From positions 1-35,392 of the forward strand of contig CANMKE010000042.1 of NCBI GenBank assembly GCA_947498325.1: DNA of 35,392 nt, read 5' to 3'. The DNA comes from an uncultured Persicobacter sp. Its GTDB lineage: Bacteria > Bacteroidota > Bacteroidia > Cytophagales > Cyclobacteriaceae. The notes beneath the pieces are model-generated. The model ran no database searches, had not been told where the DNA came from, and saw nothing but the letters and a program-made list of their open reading frames with translations. Shown one piece after another: positions 10,130 through 33,690 of the stretch. The first letter of the stretch is position 1. Every line of letters begins with the position of its first letter. The translations under genes were made by a program, and so were the position numbers.

Positions 10130-10135
10130 TATTTT

Positions 10136-10729: not shown

Positions 10730-10748
10730 ATTAATTATAGGTTTGAAA

Positions 10749-13376: not shown

Positions 13377-13415
13377 TATTCTCCCACTTTGTGGGATAAA
13401 TATACACCATCATCG

Positions 13416-14246
13416 TTACTCACTAATAAAAGGTGGAAGATCCTTAATCGCAACGACCTCTTTACTGATAGTGGCGCCATAAAAGAAACCAACAGCTCCC
13501 TCGCTCAGATTCCCTTCGGTATTTGCGGGAATGGTGGCAAATTCATTTGACTTCCAATCAGTCTCATTCATGACTTGATACAGGTATCTTTGATAAGCAG
13601 GACTGAAAGTTACTCGATTATAATGAAGGCTATCTGCTTTTGTACTACTGCCATAGATTGCTGTACCTCCTCCAACACTTCCCCATAAAATACCCTGAGG
13701 AATAGTTCCCTTGAAAGTGAAAGCATGGTGTGTTTGTGTTAAATAAGAAAACAAATGAATTGGCTCGGTGTACGTTTGATCATGTGGCACCACCCATAAA
13801 GCTGTTTCGGAATAACCGAAATTGTAACGGTTATGGTAAAAACCACTACCTCCCCCCCCTTGAAAATAAGGATGACGTGTAGCACTACTCGCCAAAGGCA
13901 ATACCCCTTTAGCAGTATATTCTTCGCCATTACAAATGACCATCAGCTCAAAATCTTCGCCTTCCGTGCCTTGAATTTGATCTACTGACTGATAAACATA
14001 GCTGTACTGATCACCGACAACATCAAAATCATACACCTTTCCAGCGTGCTTTAGTTGTATGGTAGCTGTTAGGAGTTGTTCTTCGGTAAGATCTGAATTT
14101 TCAGTGGCTCTGAGATTAACCTGAGCGTAGCTTTTAAGATTGGAAAAAACGCCGTCCACGGACAATTTGACGGCAGGCTTATGTACACTGCCCCAAGGTT
14201 CGCAGGCGAATAGAAAGATAAAGGATAAGAAAGTTAGGTATCTCAT
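13416..14246 (-). CDS. DUF4249-type lipoprotein
   Basis: The 276-aa product has a lipoprotein signal (MRYLTFLSFIFLFACEPWG, lipid-modified Cys at residue 15). A beta-rich body begins KPAVKLSVDGVFSNLKSYAQVNL and later has YSYVYQSVDQIQGTEGEDFELMV, which matches DUF4249 proteins. In Bacteroidota these are almost always encoded beside a TonB-dependent receptor, as here with a 6-bp gap. The protein is expected in the outer membrane or on the surface, helping substrate capture for that receptor; the substrate is unknown. It is the last gene of its transcription unit and is followed by a strong terminator. Confidence 0.75.
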   Translation of the reverse strand: MRYLTFLSFIFLFACEPWGSVHKPAVKLSVDGVFSNLKSYAQVNLRATENSDLTEEQLLTATIQLKHAGKVYDFDVVGDQYSYVYQSVDQIQGTEGEDFELMVICNGEEYTAKGVLPLASSATRHPYFQGGGGSGFYHNRYNFGYSETALWVVPHDQTYTEPIHLFSYLTQTHHAFTFKGTIPQGILWGSVGGGTAIYGSSTKADSLHYNRVTFSPAYQRYLYQVMNETDWKSNEFATIPANTEGNLSEGAVGFFYGATISKEVVAIKDLPPFISE

Positions 14247-19388: not shown

Positions 19389-20321
19389 ATGGACTATAAT
19401 AAACCACCCTTAACTTTTTCGCAACAGGTCGATTTGCTCCAGCAACGAGGCTTGATGATTCAGGATCCGGATCGTTGTGCAGACTATCTAAAACAGATCA
19501 GTTACTATCGATTGAGTGCTTATGCGCTTGTTTTTCAGCAGCAAAAAGACCAGTTCAATAGGGGAACGACTTTCCAAAATATCTTGGACCTATATGTTTT
19601 TGACCGGGAGTTGAGGTTGTTGGTTTTTGATGCGATTGAGCGCATTGAGGTGGGGATAAAAACACAATTGATCTATCAGCTTTCGCATAAATATGGGGCG
19701 CATTGGTACACGAATGCGCAGCTGTTCAAGAAAACCAGTCGGGTGGATGTTTGTGAAGAGTTGAAATCATTGGTGGTACATGCAAAGCACCAGAAAAACC
19801 CCGAGACGTTCATCAAACATTATTTTGACCGCTATCAACAGCCGGATCTTCCGCCGGCCTGGATGACGATCGAGTTACTGACCTTCGGTCAAATCTCTCG
19901 ACTATTCAAGCACCTTAAAGACAATGATGACAAAAGGCTGATCGCCGATCAATTTGGTGTGCATCATACCGTGTTTGCTTCCTGGCTTCACTCCTTGACT
20001 TACATTCGGAATATCTGTGGGCACCACGGCAGGTTGTGGAATAGGGAGATTGCCATTGAGCCTATTTGGTTGAAAAAGACGAAAAAGAGGTGGATCAATC
20101 CGGCGTTTCAGAGCAAGACCAACCGGACGTTTTATAGTTTGTGTATCATTCAGTTTCTGCTCAATACCATCAATCCCTCTTCGAGATTTAAGGAAAAATT
20201 GAATGCTTTGATGAACGCCAACAAATGCCCCAAAGGCTATATCAAGTTGATGGGGATTCCAACCGATCAGCAGGGGAGATTGCATCCATGGCTAAAGGAT
20301 CCTTTGTGGGCTGGGGAATGA
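19389..20321 (+). CDS. Abi_2 family HEPN protein, AbiF/AbiD-like
   Basis: The 310-aa product matches the Abi_2 (AbiD/F) family along its length: KPPLTFSQQVDLLQQRGL, YLKQISYYRLSAY, DLYVFDRELRLLVFDAIERIEVGIKTQL and FASWLHSLTYIRNICGHHGRLWNRE. The last segment holds the HEPN RNase motif R-x4-H (RNICGH, about residues 207-212), with the typical HH-x-RLWNR tail. The family provides abortive infection: an RNase-like toxin activated or controlled during phage infection. The ATG follows the terminator-like end of the candidate upstream RNA by two bases, so protein and RNA probably form one defence unit. The frame is intact and full length. Phage specificity cannot be inferred. Confidence 0.88.
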   Translation: MDYNKPPLTFSQQVDLLQQRGLMIQDPDRCADYLKQISYYRLSAYALVFQQQKDQFNRGTTFQNILDLYVFDRELRLLVFDAIERIEVGIKTQLIYQLSHKYGAHWYTNAQLFKKTSRVDVCEELKSLVVHAKHQKNPETFIKHYFDRYQQPDLPPAWMTIELLTFGQISRLFKHLKDNDDKRLIADQFGVHHTVFASWLHSLTYIRNICGHHGRLWNREIAIEPIWLKKTKKRWINPAFQSKTNRTFYSLCIIQFLLNTINPSSRFKEKLNALMNANKCPKGYIKLMGIPTDQQGRLHPWLKDPLWAGE

Positions 20322-20348
20322 TAGCAAGTGGGGTACAAATTTTGTAAA

Positions 20349-20517
20349 CCACGGTTGAAACCATGGCCTACCATTACAAAAACCTACTGAAGTAGGTTAG
20401 CCCTGTGGTTCCATTGAAACGGTGCGCTCAATTATGGTCCGATATTCAATTGAAAGGAGGAACCAACCCATTTCAATGGGTTTGACTCTGTTAGCCCATT
20501 GCTTCAGCTGTGGGGTA
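20349..20517. repeat. Multi-hairpin REP-like repeat, copy A
   Basis: This copy holds four short hairpins: 20349-20366 (GGTTGAAACC core), 20381-20398 (AACCTACT/AGTAGGTT), 20465-20482 (AACCCATT/AATGGGTT) and about 20492-20516. Positions 20353-20402 are identical over 50 nt to 21735-21784 in copy B. It lies between the Abi gene and the 3' end of rep. Confidence 0.7.
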
Positions 20518-20526
20518 CACAATCAA

Positions 20527-21465
20527 TCACCCCACCAAATACCCCCACATCTCTTCGGTAAAATTAAACTTATACCGTTCTCTCGCTGCCGCTTGCACCA
20601 CATCAAAAGATTGTCCTTCGTCGATCATTGGCTTTAGGATTTCCATATGGCGGAGCTGGTTATTGGTGAAATCGGCCTGAGAAGGCTTGCTATTTTCCGT
20701 TTGGGGTGGGGTATAGATGGTCTCTTCCTTTTGTTTGCTTTTAAGACTTTGCGCATAAGCATGCGGATTATCGGCCTGCTGGTCGAGGGCCGTTTGTAGC
20801 TCGGCGGAGTTTTCTTTCTGTTGGTATTTGTTGAACTGAAATTGGATGTGGGTGAATTTTCGGCCGGTTTTGAAGAGGGTGTAGGTTGCGTTGAGGTTGA
20901 TGCCCTCGTTGATTTCTTCCAAAGAACCATCGATCACCCGTCTGAAAACAGCAAACTTATCGTAACGCTTCCCTTCTGCATTCATCCACACCCGTAGTTC
21001 CTCCAAATCAATTTTTGGGGTTTGTCCACGTTTTTTCCAGCTCTGCACTACCTGAAAAAGGAAAGGGGTAAATTTGGATTTGAATTGGATCAGCGCATCC
21101 AGATCATAAGCCGTGAACTGCTTCAGGTCAATGAATGCATCCTCGCCAAAATCAGTCAGCTTAATGGACACTTGCCCCCGCTTGTAAGCGAATTCCTCGA
21201 AGATATTTTTAAACACCCAGCTTTCATCATCTTCCTTAATCTTGATCGCCTTGGTCAGACGTTCAGCCGATTCCATTATCTGCTTAGTCGTGATCTTCTT
21301 GCCCAAAGCCTCCTCAAGCTCACTCTTCTTGAAAAGGTACAGATTGTTTCCTTTTTTGAAGTTCAAACTGATAATCGCCACAATTTTACTATCCAACACC
21401 TCCCAATTTCTGCCTCCGTAGGTGATAATATGCGCCTGATAGGCATCCTTCTTCTGCAAATCCAT
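20527..21465 (-). CDS. rep: Rep_3-type replication initiator protein
   Basis: The preferred start is ATG 21465 (MDLQKKDAYQAHIITYG, 312 aa); the longer frame to 21516 adds an unlikely hydrophobic leader. The body has the Rep_3 initiator pattern of two winged-helix units: an N-terminal KLTKAIKI/FKNIFEEFAY and GQVSIKLTDFGEDAFIDL region, then FTPFLFQVVQSWKKRGQTPKIDLEELRVWM and FAVFRRVIDGSLEEIN. The C-terminal ~90 residues are Gln/Lys-rich and more variable. The protein should bind the four 22-bp iterons that lie 60-140 bp upstream of its start, recruit the replication machinery and repress its own gene. This makes the region a plasmid-type replicon, active or fossil. Confidence 0.85.
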   Translation of the reverse strand: MDLQKKDAYQAHIITYGGRNWEVLDSKIVAIISLNFKKGNNLYLFKKSELEEALGKKITTKQIMESAERLTKAIKIKEDDESWVFKNIFEEFAYKRGQVSIKLTDFGEDAFIDLKQFTAYDLDALIQFKSKFTPFLFQVVQSWKKRGQTPKIDLEELRVWMNAEGKRYDKFAVFRRVIDGSLEEINEGINLNATYTLFKTGRKFTHIQFQFNKYQQKENSAELQTALDQQADNPHAYAQSLKSKQKEETIYTPPQTENSKPSQADFTNNQLRHMEILKPMIDEGQSFDVVQAAARERYKFNFTEEMWGYLVG

Positions 21466-21525
21466 GTCCAAAGGTAGCCAAATGATACAGCAAATCAAGT
21501 TACTGTAACCTTTCATTTCCCAAAA

Positions 21526-21881: not shown

Positions 21882-22161
21882 TGCAATTGCTGTGGGGTAT
21901 AGTATTGAGCGTTTTTTATGATTGACTGACATGATTGTATTGGGGCGTAAGGTCAAGCCTGTGTGCTTGATCTATACTCATCCAATTTTCAAGATTGAAG
22001 TGCACCCAAACTGCATATCTCCCCATTACTTTTGCCTCGGGACTATTGCTTGCTATTTTGGAGCCTTAGGCTAAGCTAAACAGCAATAATTCCCCATAAA
22101 TCACTAAATTGCTCCTTCGCAAAAAAGAGGCGACTTGGGCGCTACAACAGAAAGCAAAAGC
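21882..22161. other. Leader region of the defence operon
   Basis: No gene is seen. It contains copy 2 of the 18-bp hairpin repeat (21953-21970). TACTTTTG at 22027-22034 fits the TAnnTTTG -7 box and would place transcription start near 22041, about 120 bp before the methyltransferase ATG. No -33 TTG is seen at the usual distance. Confidence 0.45.
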
Positions 22162-24831
22162 ATGAACACTTCTCAAATAGAGCAAAATGTAAAGGAGATT
22201 TTCAAATCCTTTCAATTATCCGATTTTATATATGAGCTACTGACCGCCTATGGTTTGCCGAAGGCGAGTATTTCACGGCTGAAAAATGGTAACCTGAATT
22301 TGGCAAAGTCCGAGGGAGAGGTCATTTGGAAGAAGAAGCTACGCTACAAGCTGGTCAAAGATCTGGATTTGCATTTGGCGATTACTGAATTGGCGAAAAA
22401 CAGCAAGCATGAGGAGCGTTTTATCATCGTTACTGATGGCGTGCTGTTGTTAGCGATGGACACCAAAACAGGTGAAAAGCTGGATATTGATTTGAAGGAA
22501 TTGCCGAAGCATTTTGATTTCTTTTTGCCGTGGGCAGGTATGGAAAAGGTTCAGCACCAAAATGAGAACCCGGCGGATGTGAAGGCTTCGGAGCGCATGG
22601 CGAAGCTCTTCGATCAGATCAAAAAGGATAATGACAGCGATGATGAGGCTTTTATTCATGGGCTCAATGTTTTTCTTTCCCGTTTGTTGTTCTGTTTTTT
22701 TGCCGAGGATACCGGTATTTTCACCGACAGTCAGTTCACCAATGGCATTGCTTCCCATACCCAAACCGATGGCAGTGATCTAAGCCATTACCTGGACCAA
22801 CTGTTTGAGGTCCTGAATACCGACCAACCCAATCGAGCAGATCTGCCGGCCTATTTGGAGGCTTTCCCTTATGTGAATGGTGGTCTGTTCAGACAGCGAC
22901 AGCCGGCACCACAATTCAGCCGAAAGTCCCGACAATTAATCATTGATATTGGAGATCTCGACTGGAAGGACATTAATCCTGATATTTTCGGCTCCATGTT
23001 TCAGGCGGTGATTGATCCTGAAAAAAGGGGCAACTTGGGGGCGCATTATACTTCTGTTCCCAATATCATGAAGGTGATTGAGCCTTTGTTTTTGGATGAG
23101 CTCAAGGCGGAATACCAAAAGGTGAAGGGCAATCTGCAAAAGGTGAATGAATTTCTGCACCGACTGCGCTCGATCAAAATCTTTGATCCCGCTTGTGGGA
23201 GTGGGAATTTCCTGATCATTGCCTATAAGGAATTGCGCAAGCTCGAAATGCAGGCTTTCCGTGAGCATGGCTTGATGGCGCTTTCTGGTATTGAACTATC
23301 ACAATTTTACGGCATTGAGTTGGACGACTTTGCCCATGAGATTGCTCAGCTTTCTCTATGGCTGGCAGAGCACCAAATGAATGTGGCTTTCTTCAATGAA
23401 TTTGGAAGAACCAACCCGACCTTACCCCTCAAAAAAGCAGGAAAGATTGTCTGCGGAAATGCTTGCCGACTCAACTGGGAAGAGGTATGCCCCAAAGAGG
23501 AAGGCGATGAGGTGTATATCTTGGGCAATCCGCCGTATTTGGGGGCTCGTGTACAAGAGGCTTCGCATAAAGAGGATATGGATTTTGCTCTTGCCAAATT
23601 TAAAAAATACAGAGACCTCGATTATATCGCTATTTGGTTTTACAAAGGAGCTCGTTACCTTCAAAACTCAAATACTAAATGTGCCTTTGTTTCTACCAAT
23701 TCTATTTGCCAAGGACTGCAAGTGGGGCTTTTATGGCCATATATTTTTGAATTAGGGGTTGAAATATACTTTGCCCATACTTCATTCAAATGGACAAACA
23801 GTGCTAAATCTAATGCAGGGGTAACTGTTGCGATTATTGGCTTGGCAAATGAGTCTAAAGATGAAAAAACAATCTTCTCCCGAAATATCATCAAAAAAGT
23901 AAAAGGCATTAATGCCTATCTTAGTGATGGCGGAAAGACCATTGTTAGCCGAAGATCTAAACCCCTTTCAGATTTTAAACCCATGAACTTTGGGAACATG
24001 CCCAATGATGGCGGAGGCTTAATCCTGTCGGAAGAAGAGAAAGATCAGCTGGTACAAGCACACCCTGATGCTCAAAAATTTATTCGTCAATTATTGGGAG
24101 CTCAAGAATATATTAGAGGGCAAAAAAGATATTGTTTATGGATTTCAGATGATGAAAAAGAGGAGGCATGTCAGTTTTCTGAAATCGTCAAAAGAATTGA
24201 TATTACAAAACAACATCGATTAGCGAGCAAAGATAAAGGGACGAATAAACTTGCTGAACGATCACATCAATTTAGGGATACAAAAGAACCTCAAAGTTCT
24301 CAAATCATCATGCCAAGCGTATCTTCAGAAAGAAGAGAGTATATCCCTTCAGGTTTTTTAGAAAAAGATAAAATAGTATCAAATTCAGCCCAAGTAATTT
24401 TTGATGCAGAACCTTGGCTATTGGGTGTTCTTGCTTCAAAAATCCACGTGGTTTGGCTCAAAACTGTTGGTGGTAGGTTAAAGACGGATTATAGATACGC
24501 AAAGGATATGGTGTACAACACCTTCCCTTTCCCACCAATCTCCACCCAACGCAAGAACGAGCTTACGCAATGTGTTTTCCGCATTTTGGAAGAACGGGAG
24601 AAGCATCCGGAGAAGACTTTGGCTCAGCTGTATGATCCGGATAAAATGCCGGAGGGCTTGCGGGAGGCGCATCGCCTGAATGATTTGGCGATTGAGCGTT
24701 GCTACCGTAGCAAACCCTTTGAGAGCGATGAGGAGCGTTTGGAGTACCTGTTCAAGCTGTATGAGAAGATGATCGCCGAAGAACAGGCCAAAGGGGGCTT
24801 ATTTGAAAAACCGAAAAGGAAGCGCAAGTAA
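22162..24831 (+). CDS. MmeI-like (type IIL/IIG-related) DNA methyltransferase
   Basis: The 890-aa product starts at ATG 22162 (MNTSQIEQNVKE; the frame is open from a TTG at 22135). Its order is that of the MmeI family: an N-terminal domain, a helical spacer (SRLLFCFFAEDTGIF, INPDIFGSMFQAVIDP, GAHYTS), a methyltransferase core with FDPACGSGNFL (about residues 343-353) and NPPYLG (about 455-460), a target-recognition region (about 630-790, KTDYRYAKDMVYNTFPFP) and the C-terminal LYDPDKMPEGLREAH domain. It should methylate adenine N6 at a specific site. I do not see the D-x9-ExK nuclease motif of MmeI in the first 150 residues, so cleavage may depend on the downstream GIY-YIG protein. Its stop overlaps the RhuM start by one base. 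Confidence 0.85.
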   Translation: MNTSQIEQNVKEIFKSFQLSDFIYELLTAYGLPKASISRLKNGNLNLAKSEGEVIWKKKLRYKLVKDLDLHLAITELAKNSKHEERFIIVTDGVLLLAMDTKTGEKLDIDLKELPKHFDFFLPWAGMEKVQHQNENPADVKASERMAKLFDQIKKDNDSDDEAFIHGLNVFLSRLLFCFFAEDTGIFTDSQFTNGIASHTQTDGSDLSHYLDQLFEVLNTDQPNRADLPAYLEAFPYVNGGLFRQRQPAPQFSRKSRQLIIDIGDLDWKDINPDIFGSMFQAVIDPEKRGNLGAHYTSVPNIMKVIEPLFLDELKAEYQKVKGNLQKVNEFLHRLRSIKIFDPACGSGNFLIIAYKELRKLEMQAFREHGLMALSGIELSQFYGIELDDFAHEIAQLSLWLAEHQMNVAFFNEFGRTNPTLPLKKAGKIVCGNACRLNWEEVCPKEEGDEVYILGNPPYLGARVQEASHKEDMDFALAKFKKYRDLDYIAIWFYKGARYLQNSNTKCAFVSTNSICQGLQVGLLWPYIFELGVEIYFAHTSFKWTNSAKSNAGVTVAIIGLANESKDEKTIFSRNIIKKVKGINAYLSDGGKTIVSRRSKPLSDFKPMNFGNMPNDGGGLILSEEEKDQLVQAHPDAQKFIRQLLGAQEYIRGQKRYCLWISDDEKEEACQFSEIVKRIDITKQHRLASKDKGTNKLAERSHQFRDTKEPQSSQIIMPSVSSERREYIPSGFLEKDKIVSNSAQVIFDAEPWLLGVLASKIHVVWLKTVGGRLKTDYRYAKDMVYNTFPFPPISTQRKNELTQCVFRILEEREKHPEKTLAQLYDPDKMPEGLREAHRLNDLAIERCYRSKPFESDEERLEYLFKLYEKMIAEEQAKGGLFEKPKRKRK

Positions 24832-25847
24832 TGGAACAGACGAATCAAAATATCATCATTTACAATACCGATGACGGCAAGGCTTCGGTGCGTTTATATG
24901 CCAAAGACGGTTCGGTATGGATGAACCAAAAACAGCTGGCGGAACTTTTTGCCACCTCTAAACAAAACATTGGTCAGCATATCGCTAACATACTCTCTGA
25001 AGGGGAATTAGATGAAAATTCAGTTGTAAAGAATTACTTTACAACTGCCGAAGATGGCAAGGATTATCAGGTTACCTTCTATGCCTTGGAGATGATCATT
25101 GCCATTGGTTTTCGAGTCCGAAGCAAACGGGGTACACAATTCAGAATTTGGGCGAACAAAAACCTGAAAACCTATATGGTCAAAGGCTTTGTGGTCGATA
25201 GCGAGCGCCTGAAAAATCCGGATGGTCAGCCGGATTATTTTGATGAATTACTGGAGCAAATCCGAGATATTCGGGCTTCGGAAAAACGCTTTTATCAGAA
25301 GGTAAGGGATCTTTTTGCTTTGAGCAGTGATTATGACAAAAGCGATAAGACCACGCAGATGTTTTTTGCCGAAACGCAGAATAAGTTGCTCTATGCGGTA
25401 ACGGGAAAAACAGCTTCGGAAATTGTGCTCAGCCGTGCCAATGCCGATGAGCCGAATATGGCGCTGACGAATTGGAAAGGAAAGGTTGTTCGCAAGGGTG
25501 ATATTGTGGTGGCGAAGAATTACCTGAACAAAGAGGAGATAGACACTTTGAATCGTCTGGTGGTGATCTTCCTCGAAACCGCTGAACTGCGAGCCAAAAA
25601 CCGCATGGATTTAACGATGAGTTTCTGGAAAGAAAATGTGGATCGGGTGTTGGAGTTCAACGATCAGAAAGTGTTGCAGGGTAACGGGAGCGTGAGTCAT
25701 CGCCAAATGGAGCAGAAAGTCAGGGAGATTTATGCTGAATTTGACCAAAAGCGAAAAGCCTTTGAAGCTCAGCAAGCCGATCAGCAAGACTTACAAGCAC
25801 TCAAAGCCTTGGAGCAGGAAGTCAAGTCTAAAAATCACCCCAAATAA
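24831..25847 (+). CDS. RhuM family protein
   Basis: The 338-aa product matches the 'virulence RhuM' family: an N-terminal IIIYNTDDGKASVRLYAKDG, a helix-turn-helix-like MNQKQLAELFATSKQNIGQHI, YFTTAEDGKDYQVTFYALEMIIAIGFRV and RGTQFRIWANKNLKTYMVKGFV. A helical C-terminal half includes SDYDKSDKTTQMFFAETQNKLLYAVTGKTASEIV. Such genes often lie within type I restriction loci of Bacteroidota, but the biochemical role is not settled; a regulator or toxin-like part is suggested in general terms. TAATG overlap with the methyltransferase stop implies coupled translation, so it belongs to this operon and not to a bystander. Confidence 0.85.
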   Translation: MEQTNQNIIIYNTDDGKASVRLYAKDGSVWMNQKQLAELFATSKQNIGQHIANILSEGELDENSVVKNYFTTAEDGKDYQVTFYALEMIIAIGFRVRSKRGTQFRIWANKNLKTYMVKGFVVDSERLKNPDGQPDYFDELLEQIRDIRASEKRFYQKVRDLFALSSDYDKSDKTTQMFFAETQNKLLYAVTGKTASEIVLSRANADEPNMALTNWKGKVVRKGDIVVAKNYLNKEEIDTLNRLVVIFLETAELRAKNRMDLTMSFWKENVDRVLEFNDQKVLQGNGSVSHRQMEQKVREIYAEFDQKRKAFEAQQADQQDLQALKALEQEVKSKNHPK

Positions 25848-25935
25848 TATTTTCAATACTTAAAAAAGCTAAATTGGAAAGCATAAGCAGACCGAGCACC
25901 GCTTATTTACTTTTTAGAAAATCACTTTACCGATC

Positions 25936-27876
25936 ATGCAAAATATCGTCGATGTAAGCTATCAAAGAACAGGGCAAAGCACCTGCACCAACACCATGGG
26001 GATGCGGGAAATGCAGGCAAGGGCCTACGAGGCTCGAAAGGCTCAATACCTATTGCTGAAGGCACCTCCGGCTTCGGGAAAATCGAGGGCTTTGATGTTT
26101 TTGGGTCTGGATAAGCTCGAAAATCAGGGCTTGCGGAAGGTGATTGTGGCCGTTCCGGAGCGTTCGATTGGTAGTTCTTTTGCGCCTACGGATCTGATGG
26201 CTCACGGCTTTTTTTCCAATTGGTCGCCTGACGATGAGTATAATTTGTGTACGCCAGGTGGGGATGGCAGTAAGAGCAAGGTGAAGGCTTTTCGCCGTTT
26301 TATGGAGGCGCCTTATGATCGGATTTTGATTTGTACCCATGCGACTTTGCGCTTTGCCTGCGAGGAATTGGAGGAAGAGGTATTTGATGATTGTCTGTTG
26401 GCCATTGATGAGTTTCACCATGTTTCGGCAGACAAGAACAACCGCCTTGGGGACTTGCTCAGGGGCATCATGCGAAAATCGTCGGCGCATATTATTGCCA
26501 TGACAGGTTCCTATTTCCGAGGGGACAGCGTGCCGGTTTTGGAGCCGGAAGATGAGGCCAAATTCCATAAGGTAACCTACAATTACTACGAGCAATTGAA
26601 TGGTTACCAATACCTGAAAGGCTTGGGCATCGGCTATCATTTTTATCAGGGCCGGTACACGGATGCCATTATGGAGGTGTTGGATACGGACAAAAAGACG
26701 ATTCTGCATATTCCTAATGTCAATTCGGGGGAATCGACCAAAGACAAGCAAAATGAGGTGGATTTTATCCTCGATGCAATCGGTACGGTAACCAAACAGG
26801 ATCAGGAAACGGGGGTGATTCATGTGAAGCGCCATTCGGATGGAAAGATGCTGAAGGTGGCTGATTTGGTTGAGGACACGCCAAGGGAGCGGGACAAGAT
26901 TGTGGACTACTTGCGCAAGGTCAAGAAGGTCGAGGACATGGACCTGATCATTGCGTTGGGCATGGCCAAGGAGGGTTTTGACTGGCCGTATTGCGAACAT
27001 GCCCTGACGGTGGGCTATCGTGGTTCTCTGACCGAAATTATTCAGATCATTGGTCGTGCAACACGGGACAGTGCCAATAAAAGCCATGCGCAATTTACCA
27101 ACCTGATCGCTCAGCCCGATGCTCAGGATGATGAGGTTACGCTGTCGGTGAACAATATGCTCAAGGCGATCACGGCCTCATTGCTGATGGAACAAATATT
27201 GGCGCCCAATTGGAAATTTAAAACCAAGCTGGACGAAAAGGATGATGAAGGGCCGAAGCCTGGCGAGATCAAGGTGGGCGGTTTCAAAGAGCCGTCTTCC
27301 AAGCGGGTCAAAGATATTATTGAGTCGGATTTGAATGATTTGAAAGCGACGATCTTGCAGGACAAGGATATGCAGAAGGCTATTCCTGGTAATGTGGATC
27401 CGGAGGTAATCAATACCGTGCTGATTCCAAAAGTCATCAAGGTGAAATATCCGGAGCTTTCGGATGAGGAGATTGAGGAAGTTCGTCAGCATGTGGTGGT
27501 GGATTCAGTGGTGAAAAATGGAGAAATCAAGGAAACGGGGGATAAGCGATTTATCCGTATGGCGGATTCTTTTGTGGACCTGGATGATATTCACATTGAT
27601 TTGATCGATCAGGTGAATCCCTTCCAGAAGGCATTTGAGGTGCTATCCAAGGAAGTAACTTCAAAGGTACTGAAGGTGATTAAGGAGACCATTGATGCGA
27701 CCAAAATCAAGATGACCAAAGAGGAAGTGTTGTTGCTTTATCCTAAGATCAAGGAATTCATGAAGCTGTACAACCGCAAGCCGAACATCAACTCAGCGGA
27801 TCCATTGGAAGGGCGGATGGCGCAAGCCATTATTTTCATTAATGACCAAAGAAGAAGACAACATGCTGGGGCGTAA
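25936..27876 (+). CDS. SF2 DExH helicase/translocase of the defence operon
   Basis: The 646-aa product has the SF2 motif series: Walker A APPASGKS (about residues 43-50), DEFH (about 157-160), TGSYF in place of SAT (about 190), GMAKEGFDWP (about 342) and QIIGRATRDS (about 369-378). The C-terminal 250 residues are helical and highly charged, with no nuclease motif. This is the type of motor used by type I and type III restriction enzymes; here it probably moves DNA or senses target DNA for the separate nuclease that follows. It starts 88 bp after RhuM and overlaps the next gene by 35 bp, evidence of coupled expression. A role outside restriction is possible. Confidence 0.85.
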   Translation: MQNIVDVSYQRTGQSTCTNTMGMREMQARAYEARKAQYLLLKAPPASGKSRALMFLGLDKLENQGLRKVIVAVPERSIGSSFAPTDLMAHGFFSNWSPDDEYNLCTPGGDGSKSKVKAFRRFMEAPYDRILICTHATLRFACEELEEEVFDDCLLAIDEFHHVSADKNNRLGDLLRGIMRKSSAHIIAMTGSYFRGDSVPVLEPEDEAKFHKVTYNYYEQLNGYQYLKGLGIGYHFYQGRYTDAIMEVLDTDKKTILHIPNVNSGESTKDKQNEVDFILDAIGTVTKQDQETGVIHVKRHSDGKMLKVADLVEDTPRERDKIVDYLRKVKKVEDMDLIIALGMAKEGFDWPYCEHALTVGYRGSLTEIIQIIGRATRDSANKSHAQFTNLIAQPDAQDDEVTLSVNNMLKAITASLLMEQILAPNWKFKTKLDEKDDEGPKPGEIKVGGFKEPSSKRVKDIIESDLNDLKATILQDKDMQKAIPGNVDPEVINTVLIPKVIKVKYPELSDEEIEEVRQHVVVDSVVKNGEIKETGDKRFIRMADSFVDLDDIHIDLIDQVNPFQKAFEVLSKEVTSKVLKVIKETIDATKIKMTKEEVLLLYPKIKEFMKLYNRKPNINSADPLEGRMAQAIIFINDQRRRQHAGA

Positions 27877-29089
27877 GAAATATCATTCCTTAGAAGAAAT
27901 ATTCAATGATGAGGAATTTCACCTGATCGAAGAAAAGAAAAAAGTTACTCACACCATTACGGCGGATGCTCGTCTGTTGGCTTCCTTTGAGGAGATCAAT
28001 GATTTCATTTCCAAAAATGGTCGTGAGCCAGAGCCGAATATGAGTAGCGTTTCGGAGTTTTCGCTGTATTCAAGGCTGAAAGGGCTACGAGAGGATATTG
28101 AAAAAATAGCCATGCTTAGAGCGGTGGATCTTCACCATTTATTGCCTTTGCAGGAAGAAAATATGGTGGCTGAAGATGCACCAGGCTATGGTAAAGAAAA
28201 AGAAATCAACTCCTTTGATGATATTATGGAGGATGATTTCATGGACTTGCTCGATAGCGATGATGATTGCGGACTTTTTGATTTCAACCATACACCAAGG
28301 GAAATCAATATGCCTGATTATAAGGCCAAGCGGAAACGATGCAAAGATTTCGATCAGTTTGAAGGAATGCTCAAGGCCTGTCATCGGGACTTGCAGAATG
28401 GTCTGCGCAAGATCAAGGTTTTCAAAAATGAGCAGGAAATCGACAAGGGGAATTTTTATATCCTGAAAGGCGTTTTGCTCTATGTGGCCGACATTGGCCC
28501 CCGCTTCAAAGATGAAAGCAACTCCACCAATGCCCGCCTGCGCTGTATTTTCGATAATGGAACCGAATCCGATTTGCTTTTACGCTCCCTCGGTGCCGAA
28601 CTGTACAAAGACGGCAGAAGAGTTACCCACAATGAAAATGAGGTCGTGAGCAACTTCGAAAGAGGCTTCAATGTAACGGACAAGGACCAAGATTCCGGCT
28701 ACATTTACGTGCTCAAGTCCAAGAGCCAAGACGAGCGCATTCAGCAGATTGAACACCTGTATAAGATTGGGTATTCAAGCACCAGCGTAGAAGAGCGCAT
28801 CAAAAACGCCAGTAACGAACCTACCTACCTGATGGCAGAGGTGGAGTATGTCGCCGGCTGGAAGTGCTACAATATGAATCCACAAAAATTCGAACAGCTC
28901 CTGCATAATTTCTTCGGCTCCGCTTGCCTGGAGCTCGATGTATTCGACAAGAAAGGCCGCCGGCATACCCCACGGGAGTGGTTCATTGCGCCATTGCCGA
29001 TCATCGAAAAAGCCGTTGAAGGAGTGATTAATGGTATGATTGTCGGGTATCGTTATGATGCGGAGAATCAGATGATTGCGGTGGTTTAG
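27842..29089 (+). CDS. T5orf172/GIY-YIG-type nuclease
   Basis: The 415-aa product has a charged, helical N-terminal half with an acidic stretch (about residues 125-145) and a C-terminal GIY-YIG-like domain. This reads YIYVL (about 286), LYKIGYS (about 305), VEERIKNA (catalytic-type Arg about 315), FEQLLHNFF (Glu about 350) and REWFIAPL. These are the marks of the T5orf172/MUG113 branch of GIY-YIG nucleases, so DNA cleavage is expected. The ATG lies 35 bp inside the helicase gene; ATG 27863 is an alternative. As the only clear nuclease in the operon it is the likely cutter, with the methyltransferase protecting self DNA. Confidence 0.82.
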   Translation: MTKEEDNMLGRKKYHSLEEIFNDEEFHLIEEKKKVTHTITADARLLASFEEINDFISKNGREPEPNMSSVSEFSLYSRLKGLREDIEKIAMLRAVDLHHLLPLQEENMVAEDAPGYGKEKEINSFDDIMEDDFMDLLDSDDDCGLFDFNHTPREINMPDYKAKRKRCKDFDQFEGMLKACHRDLQNGLRKIKVFKNEQEIDKGNFYILKGVLLYVADIGPRFKDESNSTNARLRCIFDNGTESDLLLRSLGAELYKDGRRVTHNENEVVSNFERGFNVTDKDQDSGYIYVLKSKSQDERIQQIEHLYKIGYSSTSVEERIKNASNEPTYLMAEVEYVAGWKCYNMNPQKFEQLLHNFFGSACLELDVFDKKGRRHTPREWFIAPLPIIEKAVEGVINGMIVGYRYDAENQMIAVV

Positions 29090-29106
29090 GTTTTTTAATA
29101 TTTTTT

Positions 29107-29454
29107 ATGAAACGAGATATAGAATTAGTCCGGAAAATTTTAGAGACCGTGAAAGAATGCGAGACATTCAATCGACCGGAAAACATTACGATTGATGGCT
29201 ATAAGCCGATGCTTATACATTACCATATAAAGCTTTTGGGAGAGGCTGGCTACTTGGAAGTTTCTGATTATTCAACTAAGGCGGGACCTAACTTTATGAT
29301 AAACGGCATGACTTGGCAAGGCCATGAATTTCTTGATACGATAAGAAATGAAACCGTTTGGAAGAAACTGACAATCCGATTCAAAGAGGATGCGGGAAAG
29401 TTACCGTTTGAAGTGATAAAGGTTATCGGTGCTACATTAATCAAAGGGCTATAA
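29107..29454 (+). CDS. DUF2513 protein
   Basis: The 115-aa product reads MKRDIELVRKILETVKEC..., YHIKLLGEAGYLEVSDY..., MTWQGHEFLDTIRNETVWKK, the conserved pattern of DUF2513. The first two-thirds looks like a winged helix-turn-helix (helix, helix, GYL turn, wing). These short proteins occur in phages, plasmids and defence loci, and their function is unknown; DNA binding or regulation is plausible. It starts 17 bp after the nuclease gene, and its TAA overlaps the ATG of the next gene, so it is probably co-expressed with the membrane protein that follows. Confidence 0.75.
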   Translation: MKRDIELVRKILETVKECETFNRPENITIDGYKPMLIHYHIKLLGEAGYLEVSDYSTKAGPNFMINGMTWQGHEFLDTIRNETVWKKLTIRFKEDAGKLPFEVIKVIGATLIKGL

Positions 29455-31424
29455 TGATGGTGGTAAGAGAAAAAATGGATATTGATAGCTTATATGCTAC
29501 CCTTCGGTATGGATCTGGCCAAGTTATACATGACAAAGAGTTTGAAAGTAGTGTTCGTATTAACCCTGAAACTACTGATGTAAATAATAATTTCATACAT
29601 ATTACATTCAGAAACTGCACGTTCAAAATGGGGGTTTCAATTACAGGCAACCTCAATAGAGGATGTGTTGAATTTGATAACTGTCAATTCGATGGTGAGT
29701 TTTTTTGTGGACATCATCTAACCTTACAAATCTTACAGATTAAAAACAACTGTAAACTAAGGTTGTTTCATTCAGCTAATGAGTGTAATATTCAACTTTT
29801 TGATATTTGGAACTCCACCATTGAATACAACCTTAATATAGACGATTTTAATTACCACCTTCCTGCTAAAGAAGAGGGTCTAAAAATAGATATAGTTGAT
29901 ACAGAAATCAGGGGAGGTATTGAAATAGATAATGCACAAATAAATTATTTTGATTTAAAAAGATCAAAAATAAATAAGGACATTAAGGTCAATAGGTCTT
30001 CAATAAGAGAAGTAGATTTAGAGAATACAATTGCCAGTAATATTTTATTCACTGGTATAAACACATTCTCTATTGCTGACGACAACCGAGAGGAAGAACA
30101 TCCTTTAAAAGATGCAAAAAAACTACATTTGAGCATTTCAAAAACAGAGATAAATCAACGTCTTATTATATCGAGTACGCAATCTGAAGAAATACTATTA
30201 GAGTCAATTACAGTCAGAAAACATACCATTATTCGTGATAATAGCGAAAATGACTTAATTATACAGCATAGTGAATTTTTTGACAAAGTAAATATTAAAG
30301 AAAATACCTTAAGGGAGTTAAGGGTTAGTGATCTAAAATCCTCATTCAAACCGTTTGAAATTTCAAAAAATAATCTCGCAAAATTGGTATTATCCGAATC
30401 TAATTTTAATAGTCTTATAATTGATCAACAGACCTCAGATTCAACTTCATTCTTAAATATATCAACAGATAATGGATTGATCATTTCTGATATTGATGAC
30501 AGTAAAAATGAAATAAAAAAAACAACAAGTATTGGCAAGTTGCTTTTGAATAATATTCATGGGCATTGTAATGTGTCTCATATTAAAGGCGAACTGTTCG
30601 ATTTAAGTAACTCAACCTTGATTGAAAATTTACATATATCAATGTGTGATTTTCAAAACTACATGATTGAAGGTTTTTTAGGAGACGGTAAAATAGTAAT
30701 CGAAAGCCCTTTAATGACTTATAAACCAAAAGATAACCGCTTCCATTTGAAAAGATGTTCATTTCAAAGCGGTGTATTTTTTAATATTGATTTTGAGGCA
30801 CTATTCAGCGATTTGGTGATTGAAAAATCAGATATTCAAGCCCTAAAATTGATTGAGGTTAAATTTCCTGAAAAAATTAAGACCGATACGGAAATAGGAT
30901 CCATTACCAATAGTACCCTATACCAACAATTGAAAACAGTTTATGAAAATCAAAACAATAAGCCCGAATCTCTTAAATATAAATCTTTAGAATATCGGAG
31001 TTACAAGCAGGAGCTAAAGGCCAAAGAGTACCTTAATAATTTATCCGATCATTTTATCTTGTGGTTAAATGAGTGGTCAAATAACCACGGAATGAACCCG
31101 TTGAAAGCACTTTTATGGATATTATTCTTAAATCTGGTATTCTCTTTTCTCTTTATTTTTACTATCTGCCTGCAAAATAGCACAAGCACCAACTGTATTG
31201 AGTATGATTTTCTGAATGATAAACTAAGTTATGTCTATTTCAGAACTTTTAATTTAACTTACTTGGTTGATCGATTATTCCCAGATAATTTCTGTCATCA
31301 AATTTCTGGCGGTAACAATATGGTAAAAGGTGGTATGATATTTTTTCTCACGGGTTTACAAAGGCTTTCCCTGGGGTACTTGTACTTTCAGTTTGTTTCT
31401 GCCTTTAGGAAGTTTGTGAAATAG
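29454..31424 (+). CDS. Beta-helix membrane protein, candidate effector
   Basis: The 656-aa product begins at the TAATG overlap. About 480 residues form a pentapeptide-like or right-handed beta-helix pattern with repeated F-x-N-C-x-F and strand-turn units (FRNCTFKMGVSITG, VEFDNCQFDGEFF, GLKIDIVDTEIRGGIEIDNA). A charged helical segment follows (about 490-545), then a transmembrane helix (about 552-575, ALLWILFLNLVFSFLFIF) and a second hydrophobic segment (about 625-645) ending in GYLYFQFVSAFRKFVK. Sensor-like solenoid plus two C-terminal membrane segments resembles pore or channel effectors of abortive systems; this is inference. The gene is markedly more AT-rich than the first four genes, which suggests a separate origin. 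Confidence 0.7.
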   Translation: MMVVREKMDIDSLYATLRYGSGQVIHDKEFESSVRINPETTDVNNNFIHITFRNCTFKMGVSITGNLNRGCVEFDNCQFDGEFFCGHHLTLQILQIKNNCKLRLFHSANECNIQLFDIWNSTIEYNLNIDDFNYHLPAKEEGLKIDIVDTEIRGGIEIDNAQINYFDLKRSKINKDIKVNRSSIREVDLENTIASNILFTGINTFSIADDNREEEHPLKDAKKLHLSISKTEINQRLIISSTQSEEILLESITVRKHTIIRDNSENDLIIQHSEFFDKVNIKENTLRELRVSDLKSSFKPFEISKNNLAKLVLSESNFNSLIIDQQTSDSTSFLNISTDNGLIISDIDDSKNEIKKTTSIGKLLLNNIHGHCNVSHIKGELFDLSNSTLIENLHISMCDFQNYMIEGFLGDGKIVIESPLMTYKPKDNRFHLKRCSFQSGVFFNIDFEALFSDLVIEKSDIQALKLIEVKFPEKIKTDTEIGSITNSTLYQQLKTVYENQNNKPESLKYKSLEYRSYKQELKAKEYLNNLSDHFILWLNEWSNNHGMNPLKALLWILFLNLVFSFLFIFTICLQNSTSTNCIEYDFLNDKLSYVYFRTFNLTYLVDRLFPDNFCHQISGGNNMVKGGMIFFLTGLQRLSLGYLYFQFVSAFRKFVK

Positions 31425-31527: not shown

Positions 31528-32994
31528 TCACCCCTCAAAATTCTGAGGTAACAACGCCTCCAACTTATCCTTAGGAGTTGTGTGGATATTTTCAAGAACA
31601 TGAGTAAGCCATTGCACTGGGTTCACACCATTGAGTTTACATGTGGCAAAAAAGGAATAGAACATCGCGGCCCATTGTCCACCACTTTCTGAACCTACGA
31701 ACATATAGTTTTTGCGTCCAATGGCGATTGGTCGGATTTGATTTTCTATTAAGTTATTGTCAGGCAACAACAGCCCATCTTCAGCATAGTTGACCATTCG
31801 ATCAAACATGTTGAGGAAATATTGAAAAGCTTTGCCTAAATCCTGTTTTGGGGTGGTATATATTGCATTTTCTTTGATCCATTCCTTTAAATCCATCAGA
31901 ATTGGAAGGATCTGTTCTTTTCGTTTTTGCTGCCGGACGGAAGCCTCTTTTTCTTTGAGCGCACGCTCGATCTCGTAAATTTTTCCTATTTCTTTGAGCG
32001 CATATAAGGCTCTTTTTTTGTCATTCTTTTGTGCCTCGAAGAATTTTCGACGAATATGAGCCAGGCAGGCAACCAATGTTACTTCTTTGTGATTTCCCAA
32101 GTAATCATAACCTGCGTAACCATCAACCTGAATATATTTTCCGGTGAAGTCATCAAAAAATTTCTTCGCATGCACAGCACCTCGTCCACGGTTGAACTGA
32201 AAGCAAGCAATTTTCTCACATGGCGCATGATACGCCCACATATAGGCTTTCACTGCTCCACCTTTTTTACTGAGTTTGATCGTGGTTTCATCAGCCTGCA
32301 CATAATTGGATTGCTGTACTTTTTGAGTCAGAAGTTGATACAATTCTTCAAGCAATTCAGCTGACTTTTTGATCCAATTGTTGATGGTCGAATCTGATAT
32401 GACGATCTGATCCCGTTTGAACATCTGGATCAGACGATAAATCGGTAGGTGATCCACAAATTTGCTGACCAATAAATAAGAAAGCAACGAAGCGGATACA
32501 TTGCCCTTCGGAATGGGAATTCTTGAGGGGTAATCTGCCATCAATGATTCAAACCGCTCATCCTCCAAAGGAATCACATACCTCTCCCGATGAAAACAAA
32601 GTTTAATTAGCTTCGACGGTTGATAGTCCAGTACTTCAACCACTTCCGCACCAATTTTTTGCGCATTTTCGGGAAGATTCTTGGGCTTCAAATAAATATC
32701 CTTGGTCGGTAGATCTTTCGGAAGCACCAGCCTTTTGGCTAATCCTTTTTTACGTGACTTTTTATTAGTTGTATTTTGAGTAGATTCCTCAATGGGAGTG
32801 TCTATGATTTGTTGCCCGTCAAAAAGTATTTCAGTTTGCTTTTCATCCACCACTTTCCCCTTAGGCATCCGCTCTGATCTCGAGCCATTATGCAATTTCA
32901 AAAAATAACTGAGTTGTTGTTCCATCACCTCAAAACGGTGTTTCAGATCGATATGATCCTTGAGTAAGTCATTATATTTAGAGGTGATGTCCAT
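31528..32994 (-). CDS. tnpC: IS66 family transposase TnpC
   Basis: The 488-aa product is the full-length IS66 DDE transposase. It has an N-terminal coiled coil and a basic region (KKSRKKGLAKRLVLP). A Cys-poor linker is followed by YVQADETTIKL (first Asp about residue 234), QVDGYAGYD (second Asp about 289) and NNLIENQIRPIAIGRKNYMFVGSE (Glu about 417). It catalyses cutting and joining of the element ends. The start ATG 32994 lies 31 bp after TnpB. The frame is intact and the stop is 18 bp inside the left end of the element. Confidence 0.95.
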   Translation of the reverse strand: MDITSKYNDLLKDHIDLKHRFEVMEQQLSYFLKLHNGSRSERMPKGKVVDEKQTEILFDGQQIIDTPIEESTQNTTNKKSRKKGLAKRLVLPKDLPTKDIYLKPKNLPENAQKIGAEVVEVLDYQPSKLIKLCFHRERYVIPLEDERFESLMADYPSRIPIPKGNVSASLLSYLLVSKFVDHLPIYRLIQMFKRDQIVISDSTINNWIKKSAELLEELYQLLTQKVQQSNYVQADETTIKLSKKGGAVKAYMWAYHAPCEKIACFQFNRGRGAVHAKKFFDDFTGKYIQVDGYAGYDYLGNHKEVTLVACLAHIRRKFFEAQKNDKKRALYALKEIGKIYEIERALKEKEASVRQQKRKEQILPILMDLKEWIKENAIYTTPKQDLGKAFQYFLNMFDRMVNYAEDGLLLPDNNLIENQIRPIAIGRKNYMFVGSESGGQWAAMFYSFFATCKLNGVNPVQWLTHVLENIHTTPKDKLEALLPQNFEG

Positions 32995-33025
32995 GACTAA
33001 ATATAATCAAAAACAGCCATTTAAG

Positions 33026-33391
33026 CTAATTAAAGACTGTTTTTAGACTGATATCGCTTCCTATTTTTTCGTTTTCCAAACCGATACCTTCGAGCATCAT
33101 CATGACCGTTGCATGAGATATTTTTAGACTGGCAGTTCCAATATTATGCTTTTGAGGGAGCTCTATGCGCCCCTTTTCCAAACGCTTAAAATAGATCGCA
33201 AAGCCATCGCCTTCAAAACGAAGTAACTTGATCATATTTCGTGATTTATTGACAAAAATATAAATATTCCGGTCCATTGGGTTTTTATCCGTACAATTCC
33301 TTATCAAACCACAAAGCCCATCGAAACTCTTGCGCATATCCGTTGGCTCACTGAATAGAAATAATAAATCCTTTGGTCCAACAGCTAACAT
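33026..33391 (-). CDS. tnpB: IS66 accessory protein TnpB
   Basis: The 121-aa product has the TnpB signature: LLFLFSEPTDMRKSFDGLCGLI, IYIFVNKSRNMIKLLRFEGDGFAIYFKRLEKGR. It is the second of the three IS66 genes and is needed for efficient transposition in studied members, though its chemistry is not known. Its start overlaps the tnpA stop by 7 bp, as is usual in this family. Confidence 0.95.
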   Translation of the reverse strand: MLAVGPKDLLFLFSEPTDMRKSFDGLCGLIRNCTDKNPMDRNIYIFVNKSRNMIKLLRFEGDGFAIYFKRLEKGRIELPQKHNIGTASLKISHATVMMMLEGIGLENEKIGSDISLKTVFN

Positions 33392-33690
33392 GAGTGAATG
33401 ATATCAGTTAAACGTTCCATTGATGAGTCCGATGGCATGAAAATTTTGACGCCATTGGGAAAATGAATTTCAATTTCACCCTGCGTTACTTTTTCCTCCT
33501 GCTCTGAAGGCCAATCCACTTCAAGTGTGTGAAATTGAGAAAAGCTTGATACCTTTTCCTTTTTTAAACGCTTCCATTTATAAAAACTCGCTTGACTGAT
33601 GTCTTCGGATTCACAAAATTCTCGAATACTCAACGAGGAACGTTCCCACTTTTCTACCAAAGCAATCTTTTGTTTTTTACCTCTTTTCAT
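33385..33690 (-). CDS. tnpA: IS66 accessory protein TnpA
   Basis: The 101-aa product has a helix-turn-helix near its start (KIALVEKWERSSLSIREFCESEDISQASFYKWKR), typical of IS66 TnpA, which probably binds DNA. A short beta-rich tail (EIEIHFPNGVKIFMP) follows. It is the first gene of the insertion sequence, about 80 bp from the right end, where the promoter should lie. Confidence 0.9.
   Translation of the reverse strand: MKRGKKQKIALVEKWERSSLSIREFCESEDISQASFYKWKRLKKEKVSSFSQFHTLEVDWPSEQEEKVTQGEIEIHFPNGVKIFMPSDSSMERLTDIIHSC

What the first reader, a model, noticed from the sequence alone, without database searches (positions are those of the whole stretch)
22027..31424. Six-gene defence operon: MmeI-like methyltransferase, RhuM, SF2 helicase, GIY-YIG nuclease, DUF2513, beta-helix membrane protein
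Coupled starts (TAATG twice, a 35-bp overlap, a 17-bp gap) tie the genes into one unit. The methyltransferase lacks a nuclease motif I can see, while a separate helicase and a T5orf172-type nuclease are encoded downstream. This would be a restriction system with modification, motor and cutter on separate chains, backed up by a membrane protein that may kill or depolarise the cell. I do not know a named system with this exact composition.
Basis: partly seen in the sequence, partly recalled or inferred. Interest (0 to 1): 0.85.

Follow-up and report, generated by a model that had tools for sequence, protein, structure and literature searches.

The report
Three-part restriction system with embedded gene
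A bacterial DNA-marking enzyme, a DNA motor and a DNA cutter made as separate proteins probably form a known but little-studied anti-virus system, and the gap between marker and motor turns out to be a place where relatives often carry extra, exchangeable genes, many of them of defence type.

Summary
The six ORFs exist; four belong together, two are not shown to. Of 80 related loci, 79 have the nuclease, 69 the methyltransferase (the 11 misses lie within 2.4 kb of a contig end), 13 RhuM, none DUF2513 or the membrane protein. The MmeI nuclease motif is in 0 of 60 family members and 18 of 21 other phylum hits. New here: the methyltransferase-helicase junction is an insertion slot (over 300 bp in 34 of 68 loci; helicase-nuclease junction 2 of 79), holding RhuM, Schlafen/AlbA-HATPase, Fic, Bro-N and others whose identity is scattered on the helicase tree as at random. 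RhuM in the window is one such insert. Helicase C-terminus and nuclease N-terminus share a short domain. DUF2513 and the low-GC membrane protein look like a passenger. Best reading: three-chain restriction with an embedded gene. No function was tested.

The parts
22135..24831 (+). MmeI-like adenine DNA methyltransferase with its own target recognition domain (DnmA/YeeA type), nuclease motif absent; likely true start ATG 22162
   Evidence: Pfam MmeI_Mtase E 3.2e-106, MmeI_TRD E 6.5e-81, MmeI_N, MmeI_hel, MmeI_C; PDB MmeI 5hr4 E 6e-195; DPACGSGNF 351-359 and NPP 465-467 at least 97% conserved in 60 sequences; nuclease motif 0 of 60
23929..24537 (+). target recognition domain, residues 599-801
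   Evidence: Pfam MmeI_TRD
24829..25935 (+). insertion slot between methyltransferase and helicase, here filled by RhuM
   Evidence: 34 of 68 related loci carry more than 300 bp here, against 2 of 79 at the helicase-nuclease junction
24831..25847 (+). RhuM family protein (PADLOC candidate PDC-S05), embedded gene
   Evidence: Pfam Virulence_RhuM E 5.9e-108; PDC-S05 E 5.5e-148; upstream of the helicase in 13 of 13 related loci with a RhuM match, 8 of them full-length
25936..27876 (+). SF2 helicase/translocase (YeeB type); Walker A K49-S50, DEFH 158-161, motif VI R374/R377 conserved
   Evidence: alignment of 76 sequences; match in 263 of 72,556 plasmid records
27736..27849 (+). helicase C-terminal short domain (residues 601-638) that aligns with the nuclease N-terminal domain
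   Evidence: hhalign probability 90.9, E 1.1e-6; 20 column shuffles at most 1.15; 57.1 with longer flanks
27842..29089 (+). GIY-YIG (T5orf172/MUG113) nuclease (YeeC type) with Y289, K308-I309-G310, R319, E351, H355 conserved
   Evidence: Pfam MUG113 E 1.1e-12, T5orf172 E 3.4e-12; 74 sequences; AlphaFold model pLDDT 85.1; BFVD matches incl. named T5orf172 proteins, best E 3.3e-6
27983..28096 (+). nuclease N-terminal helical domain (residues 48-85), counterpart of the helicase C-terminal domain
   Evidence: helices 41-59, 70-84, 86-95 in the model
28697..29020 (+). GIY-YIG catalytic domain (residues 286-393)
29107..29454 (+). DUF2513 protein; not part of the conserved set
   Evidence: Pfam E 2.1e-26; no match in 80 related loci or in 58 other related genomes; 74 plasmid records
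29454..31424 (+). membrane protein, GC 31%, strand-rich N-terminus and hydrophobic C-terminus; not part of the conserved set
   Evidence: no match in 80 related loci; GC 0.311 against 0.433-0.481 for the first four genes; hydrophobic segment 553-571

Best explanation
The locus is a three-chain restriction-modification system of the DnmA-YeeB-YeeC kind with an embedded RhuM gene, followed by an unrelated two-gene passenger. The methyltransferase carries its own target recognition domain, binds a non-palindromic site and methylates adenine on one strand. When the site is unmethylated, the complex recruits or activates the SF2 motor, which moves along DNA using ATP, and the GIY-YIG subunit cuts. 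The nuclease is probably tethered by flexible acidic linkers and by a short helical domain that it shares with the helicase C-terminus. RhuM sits in the methyltransferase-helicase slot as an exchangeable defence-type insert, probably co-expressed with the complex. Shown here: gene order and conservation, absence of the MmeI nuclease motif, intact motor and nuclease motifs, the slot and the turnover of its contents, the shared domain. Inferred: complex formation, cleavage dependent on the methyltransferase, phage restriction, any role of RhuM.
For: Helicase, nuclease and methyltransferase occur together: nuclease 79 of 80, methyltransferase 69 of 80 loci, all 11 misses having under 2.41 kb of sequence upstream of the helicase; in a separate draw of Bacteroidota genomes the nuclease follows the helicase in 8 of 8 and a full-length methyltransferase precedes it in 6 of 8. 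Motor, methyltransferase and GIY-YIG motif residues at least 97% conserved. MmeI nuclease motif in 0 of 60 DnmA-type proteins but 18 of 21 other homologues, the three misses lying beside a helicase gene themselves. Shared domain between motor and cutter. In Acinetobacter-type loci the nuclease N-terminal part is a separate ORF, divided between residues 102 and 121, where the model has a low-confidence linker at 107-118. Literature: DnmA methylates GACGAG, was proposed as Type I-like with YeeB/YeeC, and deletion of the dnmA and yeeB homologues in Vibrio crassostreae raised sensitivity to some phages (PMC7261158 and PMC9973331, passages). Slot; contents; turnover. In 3 of 5 plasmid RhuM loci read, RhuM directly follows a methyltransferase gene of another system.
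Against: In B. subtilis the same cluster gave no protection against three phages and no block to transformation, and was called a relic (PMC9973331, PMC7261158, passages). No methylome, protein interaction or phage test exists for this locus. The 80 loci are the best-scoring of 548, so near relatives are over-represented. The shared-domain match falls to probability 57.1 (E 1.1e-4) with longer flanks. In the separate draw one of 8 loci also has more than 300 bp (384) between helicase and nuclease ORFs and another 273, so the second junction is not always tight.
Confidence: 0.7

Rival explanations
1. A restriction relic: the methyltransferase works as an orphan (regulatory) enzyme and helicase and nuclease no longer restrict, as proposed for B. 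subtilis.
For: Published negative results for B. subtilis (PMC9973331, PMC7261158, passages).
Against: In this window all three ORFs are full-length with the conserved motifs; they lie on a contig with a plasmid-type replication gene, and the helicase is found in 263 of 72,556 plasmid records, where a useless set should decay (inference); the mBio paper notes stretches missing from B. subtilis YeeB/YeeC and protection in Vibrio crassostreae.
Confidence: 0.12
2. A six-gene integrated defence operon in which DUF2513 and the membrane protein are a second, cell-killing layer.
For: TAATG coupling of DUF2513 to the membrane protein and a 17-bp gap after the nuclease; no + strand terminator-like site between the nuclease and the membrane protein in a simple scan; 17 of 69 related loci also have a co-directional ORF of at least 80 aa within 60 bp of the nuclease gene, so tails of some kind are not rare.
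Against: No match to either gene in 80 related loci; GC 31% for the membrane protein; membrane-protein matches in 5 of 58 other related genomes, none with a DUF2513 match; the ORFs behind the nuclease in other loci do not form one family (largest cluster 4 of 210 ORFs).
Confidence: 0.1
3. A non-cleaving exclusion system like BREX, in which methylation marks self and the other proteins stop phage replication without cutting.
For: The methyltransferase domain is related to PglX/BrxX, and the helicase has weak matches to PbeA (best E 1.3e-8).
Against: The best BREX model scores 40.2 bits against a cut-off of 500; no PglZ, BrxC or BrxL among the ORFs scanned around it; a GIY-YIG gene is present in 79 of 80 loci with its motif residues conserved.
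Confidence: 0.05

Closest known systems
DnmA-YeeB-YeeC of Bacillus subtilis (PMC7261158, PMC9973331, passages read; Morgan et al. 2009 cited there, not held)
   Same: Same three families in the same order; methyltransferase homologous to MmeI without its nuclease motif; helicase and T5orf172 nuclease downstream
   Different: The window has RhuM between methyltransferase and helicase and two more genes behind; no direct sequence comparison with the B. subtilis proteins was made
MmeI, single-chain Type II restriction enzyme (PDB 5hr4)
   Same: Methyltransferase and target recognition parts align, query 94-881, E 6e-195
   Different: The DLxWKGxxxVExK-like nuclease motif is absent; cutter and motor are separate genes
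Type I systems with an embedded defence gene: DarTG2 between hsdS and hsdR (PMC12255303, passages), PrrC within ecoprrI (PMC12707154, passages)
   Same: Accessory defence gene among the genes of a restriction system; RhuM itself was found between M and S genes of a Type I system
   Different: Different core proteins; no guard function is known for RhuM
PADLOC phage-defence candidate PDC-S05 (RhuM); 'guilt by embedding', Payne et al. 2024 (preprint, seen only as cited in PMC12255303 and PMC12629846)
   Same: RhuM matches PDC-S05, E 5.5e-148
   Different: Whether the DnmA-YeeB-YeeC slot was part of that survey could not be checked; that PDC families come from it is recalled

Membership tests
DnmA-YeeB-YeeC cluster | MmeI-homologous methyltransferase without the nuclease motif | tested here: met
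DnmA-YeeB-YeeC cluster | SF2 helicase and T5orf172/GIY-YIG gene downstream in this order | tested here: met
   nuclease behind the helicase in 79 of 80 related loci
DnmA-YeeB-YeeC cluster | Sequence similarity to the B. subtilis proteins themselves | not tested
   the B. subtilis sequences were not fetched; a Bacillus locus (L069, B. mediterraneensis) is in the set
DnmA-YeeB-YeeC cluster | m6A at a non-palindromic site | not testable with these tools
   needs a methylome
Type IIG/IIL single-chain restriction enzyme (MmeI) | PD-ExK nuclease in the N-terminus of the same chain | tested here: not met
   motif in 0 of 60 DnmA-type sequences (window included) and 18 of 21 other homologues
Type I restriction-modification | HsdM, HsdS and HsdR subunits | tested here: not met
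   one chain with MmeI-type methyltransferase and recognition domain; motor and nuclease on separate chains
BREX | PglX at family level together with PglZ, BrxC, BrxL | tested here: not met
   PglX models far below cut-off; no such neighbours among the ORFs scanned
Embedded defence gene PDC-S05 (RhuM) | RhuM family protein encoded between core genes of a defence system | tested here: met
Six-gene unit as proposed | Conserved co-occurrence of all six genes | tested here: not met
   DUF2513 and membrane protein matched in 0 of 80 loci

The most novel reading that the evidence does not exclude
The methyltransferase-helicase slot is a guard bay: whatever gene sits there (RhuM, Schlafen/AlbA-HATPase, Fic, AAA_13 ATPase, PD-T4-9) is held in check by, or reports on, the restriction complex and acts when a phage inhibits it, as PrrC does for EcoprrI; in the window the tail pair DUF2513-membrane protein would be a further newly captured effector of the same kind.
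Probability: 0.15. Interest if true: 0.75.

Novelty: new variant of a known kind. Interest (0 to 1): 0.45.

Why it matters
PADLOC-DB 2.0.0, the one defence library searched, takes the methyltransferase for a Type IIG restriction enzyme (1045.6 bits) although its nuclease motif is gone, while motor and cutter get only weak hits. A widespread system is thus half-annotated, and in its best-studied host (B. subtilis) it looked inactive. The slot gives a simple way to collect candidate defence genes: read what lies between a nuclease-less MmeI-type methyltransferase and its helicase. One such insert holds two genes of a known system (PD-T4-9); several hold genes without a family match. If slot genes turn out to guard the complex, that would extend the PrrC principle to another restriction family.

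Tried and rejected
Foldseek of the nuclease model against the PDB gave no match at E 0.001 or better; the best compact one is an SH3-like domain of EF-P (5wxk_B, E 0.015, 54 columns), only suggestive. DUF2513 has no convincing solved relative (best E 0.26); its neighbours in five plasmids show no shared partner by annotation. BREX, Type I and Type IIG membership were considered and not met. Promoter-like sites are no more frequent than in shuffles (24 against 23.8); terminator-like sites are (18 against 9.4), one on the + strand at 27816-27831, inside the end of the helicase gene just before the nuclease start, which speaks mildly against one even transcript. A first count of the slot gave 36 of 68 loci at 300 bp or less and 32 above; the ORF-based count (34 and 34) is used, the difference being L029 and L082. 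Papers: Morgan 2009, Piel 2022, Makarova 2011 and Payne 2024 are not held; what is said of them rests on passages in PMC7261158, PMC9973331, PMC12255303 and PMC12629846. PMC13230959, PMC12602166 and PMC11797060 were opened at passages only and gave nothing on the cluster. Rows dropped before counts: methyltransferases of L017 and L050 (at contig starts) and L029 (changes frame), helicase of L086 (406 of 646 aa), nucleases of L056 and L065 (two ORFs), RhuM fragments of L020, L023, L028, L048, L056, and ORFs running off a contig. In one search eight frames under 850 aa were left out. The first pattern D-x(7-14)-ExK hit 10 of 60 DnmA-type sequences and was too loose; the motif was taken from that output, so it was fitted to the controls it separates. 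The names RloC/PrrC-like for AAA_13 proteins, and R319/E351 as catalytic GIY-YIG residues, are recalled and come from no call.

Full report
Check of the observation. Six + strand ORFs lie where stated, apart from the start: the methyltransferase frame begins at 22135 (TTG) and more likely at the ATG at 22162, not at 22027. The couplings TAATG (twice), 35-bp overlap and 17-bp gap are exact; an 88-bp gap between RhuM and the helicase was not mentioned.

What the core is. The methyltransferase matches all five MmeI domains and MmeI itself (5hr4, E 6e-195, residues 94-881). A search of 247 genomes of the phylum with this protein gave 29 genomes with a match. Of the 29 loci compared (L102-L130), 21 had a frame of at least 850 aa; 18 of these carry a DLxWKGxxxVExK-like nuclease motif near the N-terminus, and the other three (L102, L103, L121) lie beside a helicase gene of the DnmA kind. 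None of 60 DnmA-type sequences, the window included, has it. The motif was derived from the same output, so this is a description and not a blind test, but the separation is complete.

Conservation. A scan of the species genomes with an alignment of nine helicases returned the best 80 of 548 relatives. In these the nuclease gene is present in 79, the methyltransferase in 69, RhuM in 13 (8 full-length), DUF2513 and the membrane protein in none. The one locus without nuclease ends at the helicase, and the 11 without methyltransferase have 0 to 2406 bases upstream of the helicase, so contig ends explain them or could; L044 has the methyltransferase behind the nuclease. The loci carry 16 phylum names, one archaeal, many of them metagenome bins; four are unassigned. 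On plasmids 263 of 72,556 records match the helicase and 229 the nuclease; in phages two partial matches only. In a separate draw of 395 Bacteroidota genomes (own included) nine had the helicase at E 1e-60; the eight others all have the nuclease behind it, six have a full-length methyltransferase in front, one a remnant (with a helicase match that starts at residue 55), and one none in the stretch fetched.

Known or not. These three genes are DnmA (YeeA), YeeB and YeeC. PMC9973331 and PMC7261158 (passages read) report the conserved order, the earlier remark by Morgan et al. that such MmeI homologues lack the nuclease motif and lie next to helicase and nuclease genes, the suggestion of a Type I-like system, no restriction or phage protection in B. 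subtilis, and increased sensitivity to some phages after deletion of the homologues in Vibrio crassostreae. The core is therefore known. Full-text searches for a further name of the three-gene set showed nothing else in the listings seen (one search showed 15 of 493 papers), in open-licence papers only.

The slot. In 68 loci with both genes measurable, methyltransferase and helicase are at most 100 bp apart in 34 and more than 300 bp apart in 34; the helicase-nuclease junction exceeds 300 bp in 2 of 79. By sequence clustering (59 ORFs of 32 loci) and family searches of representatives, 12 of the 34 inserts contain RhuM or a piece of it, 12 a Schlafen/AlbA-HATPase protein or pieces of it (two contain both), and 7 of the remaining 12 another recognised family: Bro-N (PDC-S13; L011), PDC-M59A with Fic (L025, L030, L058, the first also with a KAP ATPase), SoFic-like Fic (L057), Abi_C/AbiJ (L033), and an M78 peptidase with HTH (L016). 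Inserts that also hold RhuM or AlbA add an AAA_13 ATPase (PDC-S06, L072), an OLD-like ATPase (L051), a DUF1016/YhcG nuclease (L026) and a PDDEXK_3 protein (L081). The other five have none: L029 is a frame change in the methyltransferase itself, L021 has one marginal match (E 7.5e-4), L046 no Pfam match, L089 no ORF of 60 aa, and L082 (336 bp) was not examined. Of the 59 insert ORFs 58 point the same way as the operon. In the separate draw, 6 of 6 loci with a full methyltransferase have 833-1886 bp between it and the helicase: AlbA type, Bro-N plus RhuM, PD-T4-9 A and C, and three with forward ORFs of 257-282 aa of unknown family; one of the 8 loci also has 384 bp, and one 273 bp, between helicase and nuclease ORFs.

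Turnover. On a quick helicase tree of 76 rows (67 with a measurable junction), insert against no insert needs 17 changes, RhuM (13 rows) 13 and AlbA type (11 rows) 9. Shuffled labels need on average 22.5, 12.2 and 10.4: having an insert follows the tree somewhat (10 of 500 shuffles as low), while the kind of insert is spread as if at random (500 and 66 of 500). Parsimony cannot tell gain from loss, the tree has 21 open forks, and long branches meet in it. The nearest helicase to the window's (81%, Algoriphagus, L010) has a gene of the AlbA-HATPase cluster and not RhuM in the slot; L023 has a RhuM piece beside a full AlbA-type gene. So contents are exchanged around a stable core. Inserts are commoner in Bacteroidota (23 of 37) than in Pseudomonadota (3 of 12) in this sample; of eight plasmid loci read, six have the genes adjacent and two a broken methyltransferase.

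RhuM elsewhere. Among five plasmid RhuM loci read, RhuM lies between M and S genes of an annotated Type I system, between a methyltransferase and a DEAD/DEAH helicase gene in two that look like Type III Mod-Res pairs (the type was not tested), and in two places without an annotated restriction system. Embedding of defence genes in restriction operons is known in general (PMC12255303, PMC12707154, passages); its extent in this family is what these counts add, as far as the searches above can tell.

Anatomy of motor and cutter. Walker A (K49, S50), DEFH (158-161) and motif VI (Q370, R374, R377) of the helicase, and Y289, K308-I309-G310, R319, N344, E351, H355 of the nuclease, are at least 97% conserved in 76 and 74 sequences. 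A model of the nuclease from 59 sequences has mean pLDDT 85.1 and pTM 0.46, with a helical N-terminal part, low-confidence linkers, a strand-rich middle part and the GIY-YIG domain; T5orf172 proteins are among its structural matches. Helicase residues 601-638 and nuclease residues 48-85 align as profiles (probability 90.9, E 1.1e-6; shuffled columns at most 1.15 in 20 trials; with longer flanks 57.1, E 1.1e-4). A short acidic motif like SLDDIF occurs 87 times in the first 160 residues of 74 nucleases, against 1.3 in shuffles, at least twice in 27, once in 33 and not in 14; the window has it at 16 and 124. In L002 and L065 (Acinetobacter), L003 (Proteus plasmid) and L056 (Thiotrichaceae) the N-terminal part and the nuclease are separate ORFs or parted by a stop. 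Together this suggests a cutter tethered by linkers and docking peptides; no partner was tested.

The last two genes. The membrane protein has GC 0.311 and DUF2513 0.391, against 0.433-0.481 for the other four. Matches to the membrane protein, mostly to its C-terminal part and weak, occur in 5 of 58 other related genomes and 3 of 394 others of the phylum, none on plasmids; none of those five genomes has a DUF2513 match. One relative (L132) lies about 2.5 kb from an Eco57I-type restriction enzyme gene, a single case. An IS66-type element follows on the other strand. The pair may still be co-transcribed with the core; 17 of 69 related loci have some co-directional gene within 60 bp of the nuclease.

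Mechanism, and what is inferred. The order of events (site recognition by the methyltransferase, ATP-driven movement, cutting by the GIY-YIG subunit) is inferred from the families and from the published Type I-like suggestion. A guard function of slot genes is inference by analogy with PrrC, which senses inhibition of EcoprrI (PMC12707154, passage). Nothing functional was tested here.

Verdict. A well-conserved, already described three-gene core with a newly counted exchangeable slot; the six-gene composition is a local assembly. New variant of a known kind, moderate interest.

Noticed in passing
window 19389-21516: A Rep3-type replication initiator (20527-21516, -) and an AbiD/Abi_2 abortive-infection protein (19389-20321, +) lie just upstream, so the contig is plasmid-like and carries a second defence gene. 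The contig ends show no exact overlap of 15 bases or more.
   Followed up: partly
window 3-5474: The first two long - strand ORFs match different parts of the same giant phage family phrog_14770 (3427 positions), the second also DNA methyltransferases; the ORF at 4851-5474 matches endolysin/tail transglycosylase families. It may be a divided polyvalent protein of a mobile element.
   Followed up: no
window 6048-14246: Long - strand ORFs without a convincing Pfam match, and for the five also searched no PHROGs match; possibly an undescribed transfer module.
   Followed up: no
window 14253-16547 and 16792-18090: A TonB-dependent receptor gene and a 432-aa ORF without Pfam, NCBIfam or PADLOC match in a GC-poor stretch.
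   Followed up: no
window 31528-33690: IS66-type transposase gene with two smaller ORFs on the - strand directly behind the membrane protein.
   Followed up: no
L161 (unnamed Bacteroidota genome): PD-T4-9 A and C genes lie between methyltransferase and helicase; a third ORF of 81 aa there was not scanned.
   Followed up: partly
L165 7743-8591, L166 5406-6179, L167 3127-3909: Slot genes of 257-282 aa without Pfam or PADLOC match in three genomes: candidate new defence genes.
   Followed up: no
L002, L003, L056, L065: The nuclease gene is divided into an N-terminal piece and the GIY-YIG part; in L002 and L003 the small piece is annotated as a hypothetical protein. PMC9258068 (passages) lists yeeC-hp-yeeB beside a resistance gene in Acinetobacter transposon Tn2009, which may be the same arrangement.
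   Followed up: partly
L044: Order helicase-nuclease-methyltransferase instead of methyltransferase first.
   Followed up: no
L131-L140: Relatives of the membrane protein mostly end in a YQ-x-I-x-AFRKF-like motif; the three scanned have no Pfam match above its cut-off.
   Followed up: partly
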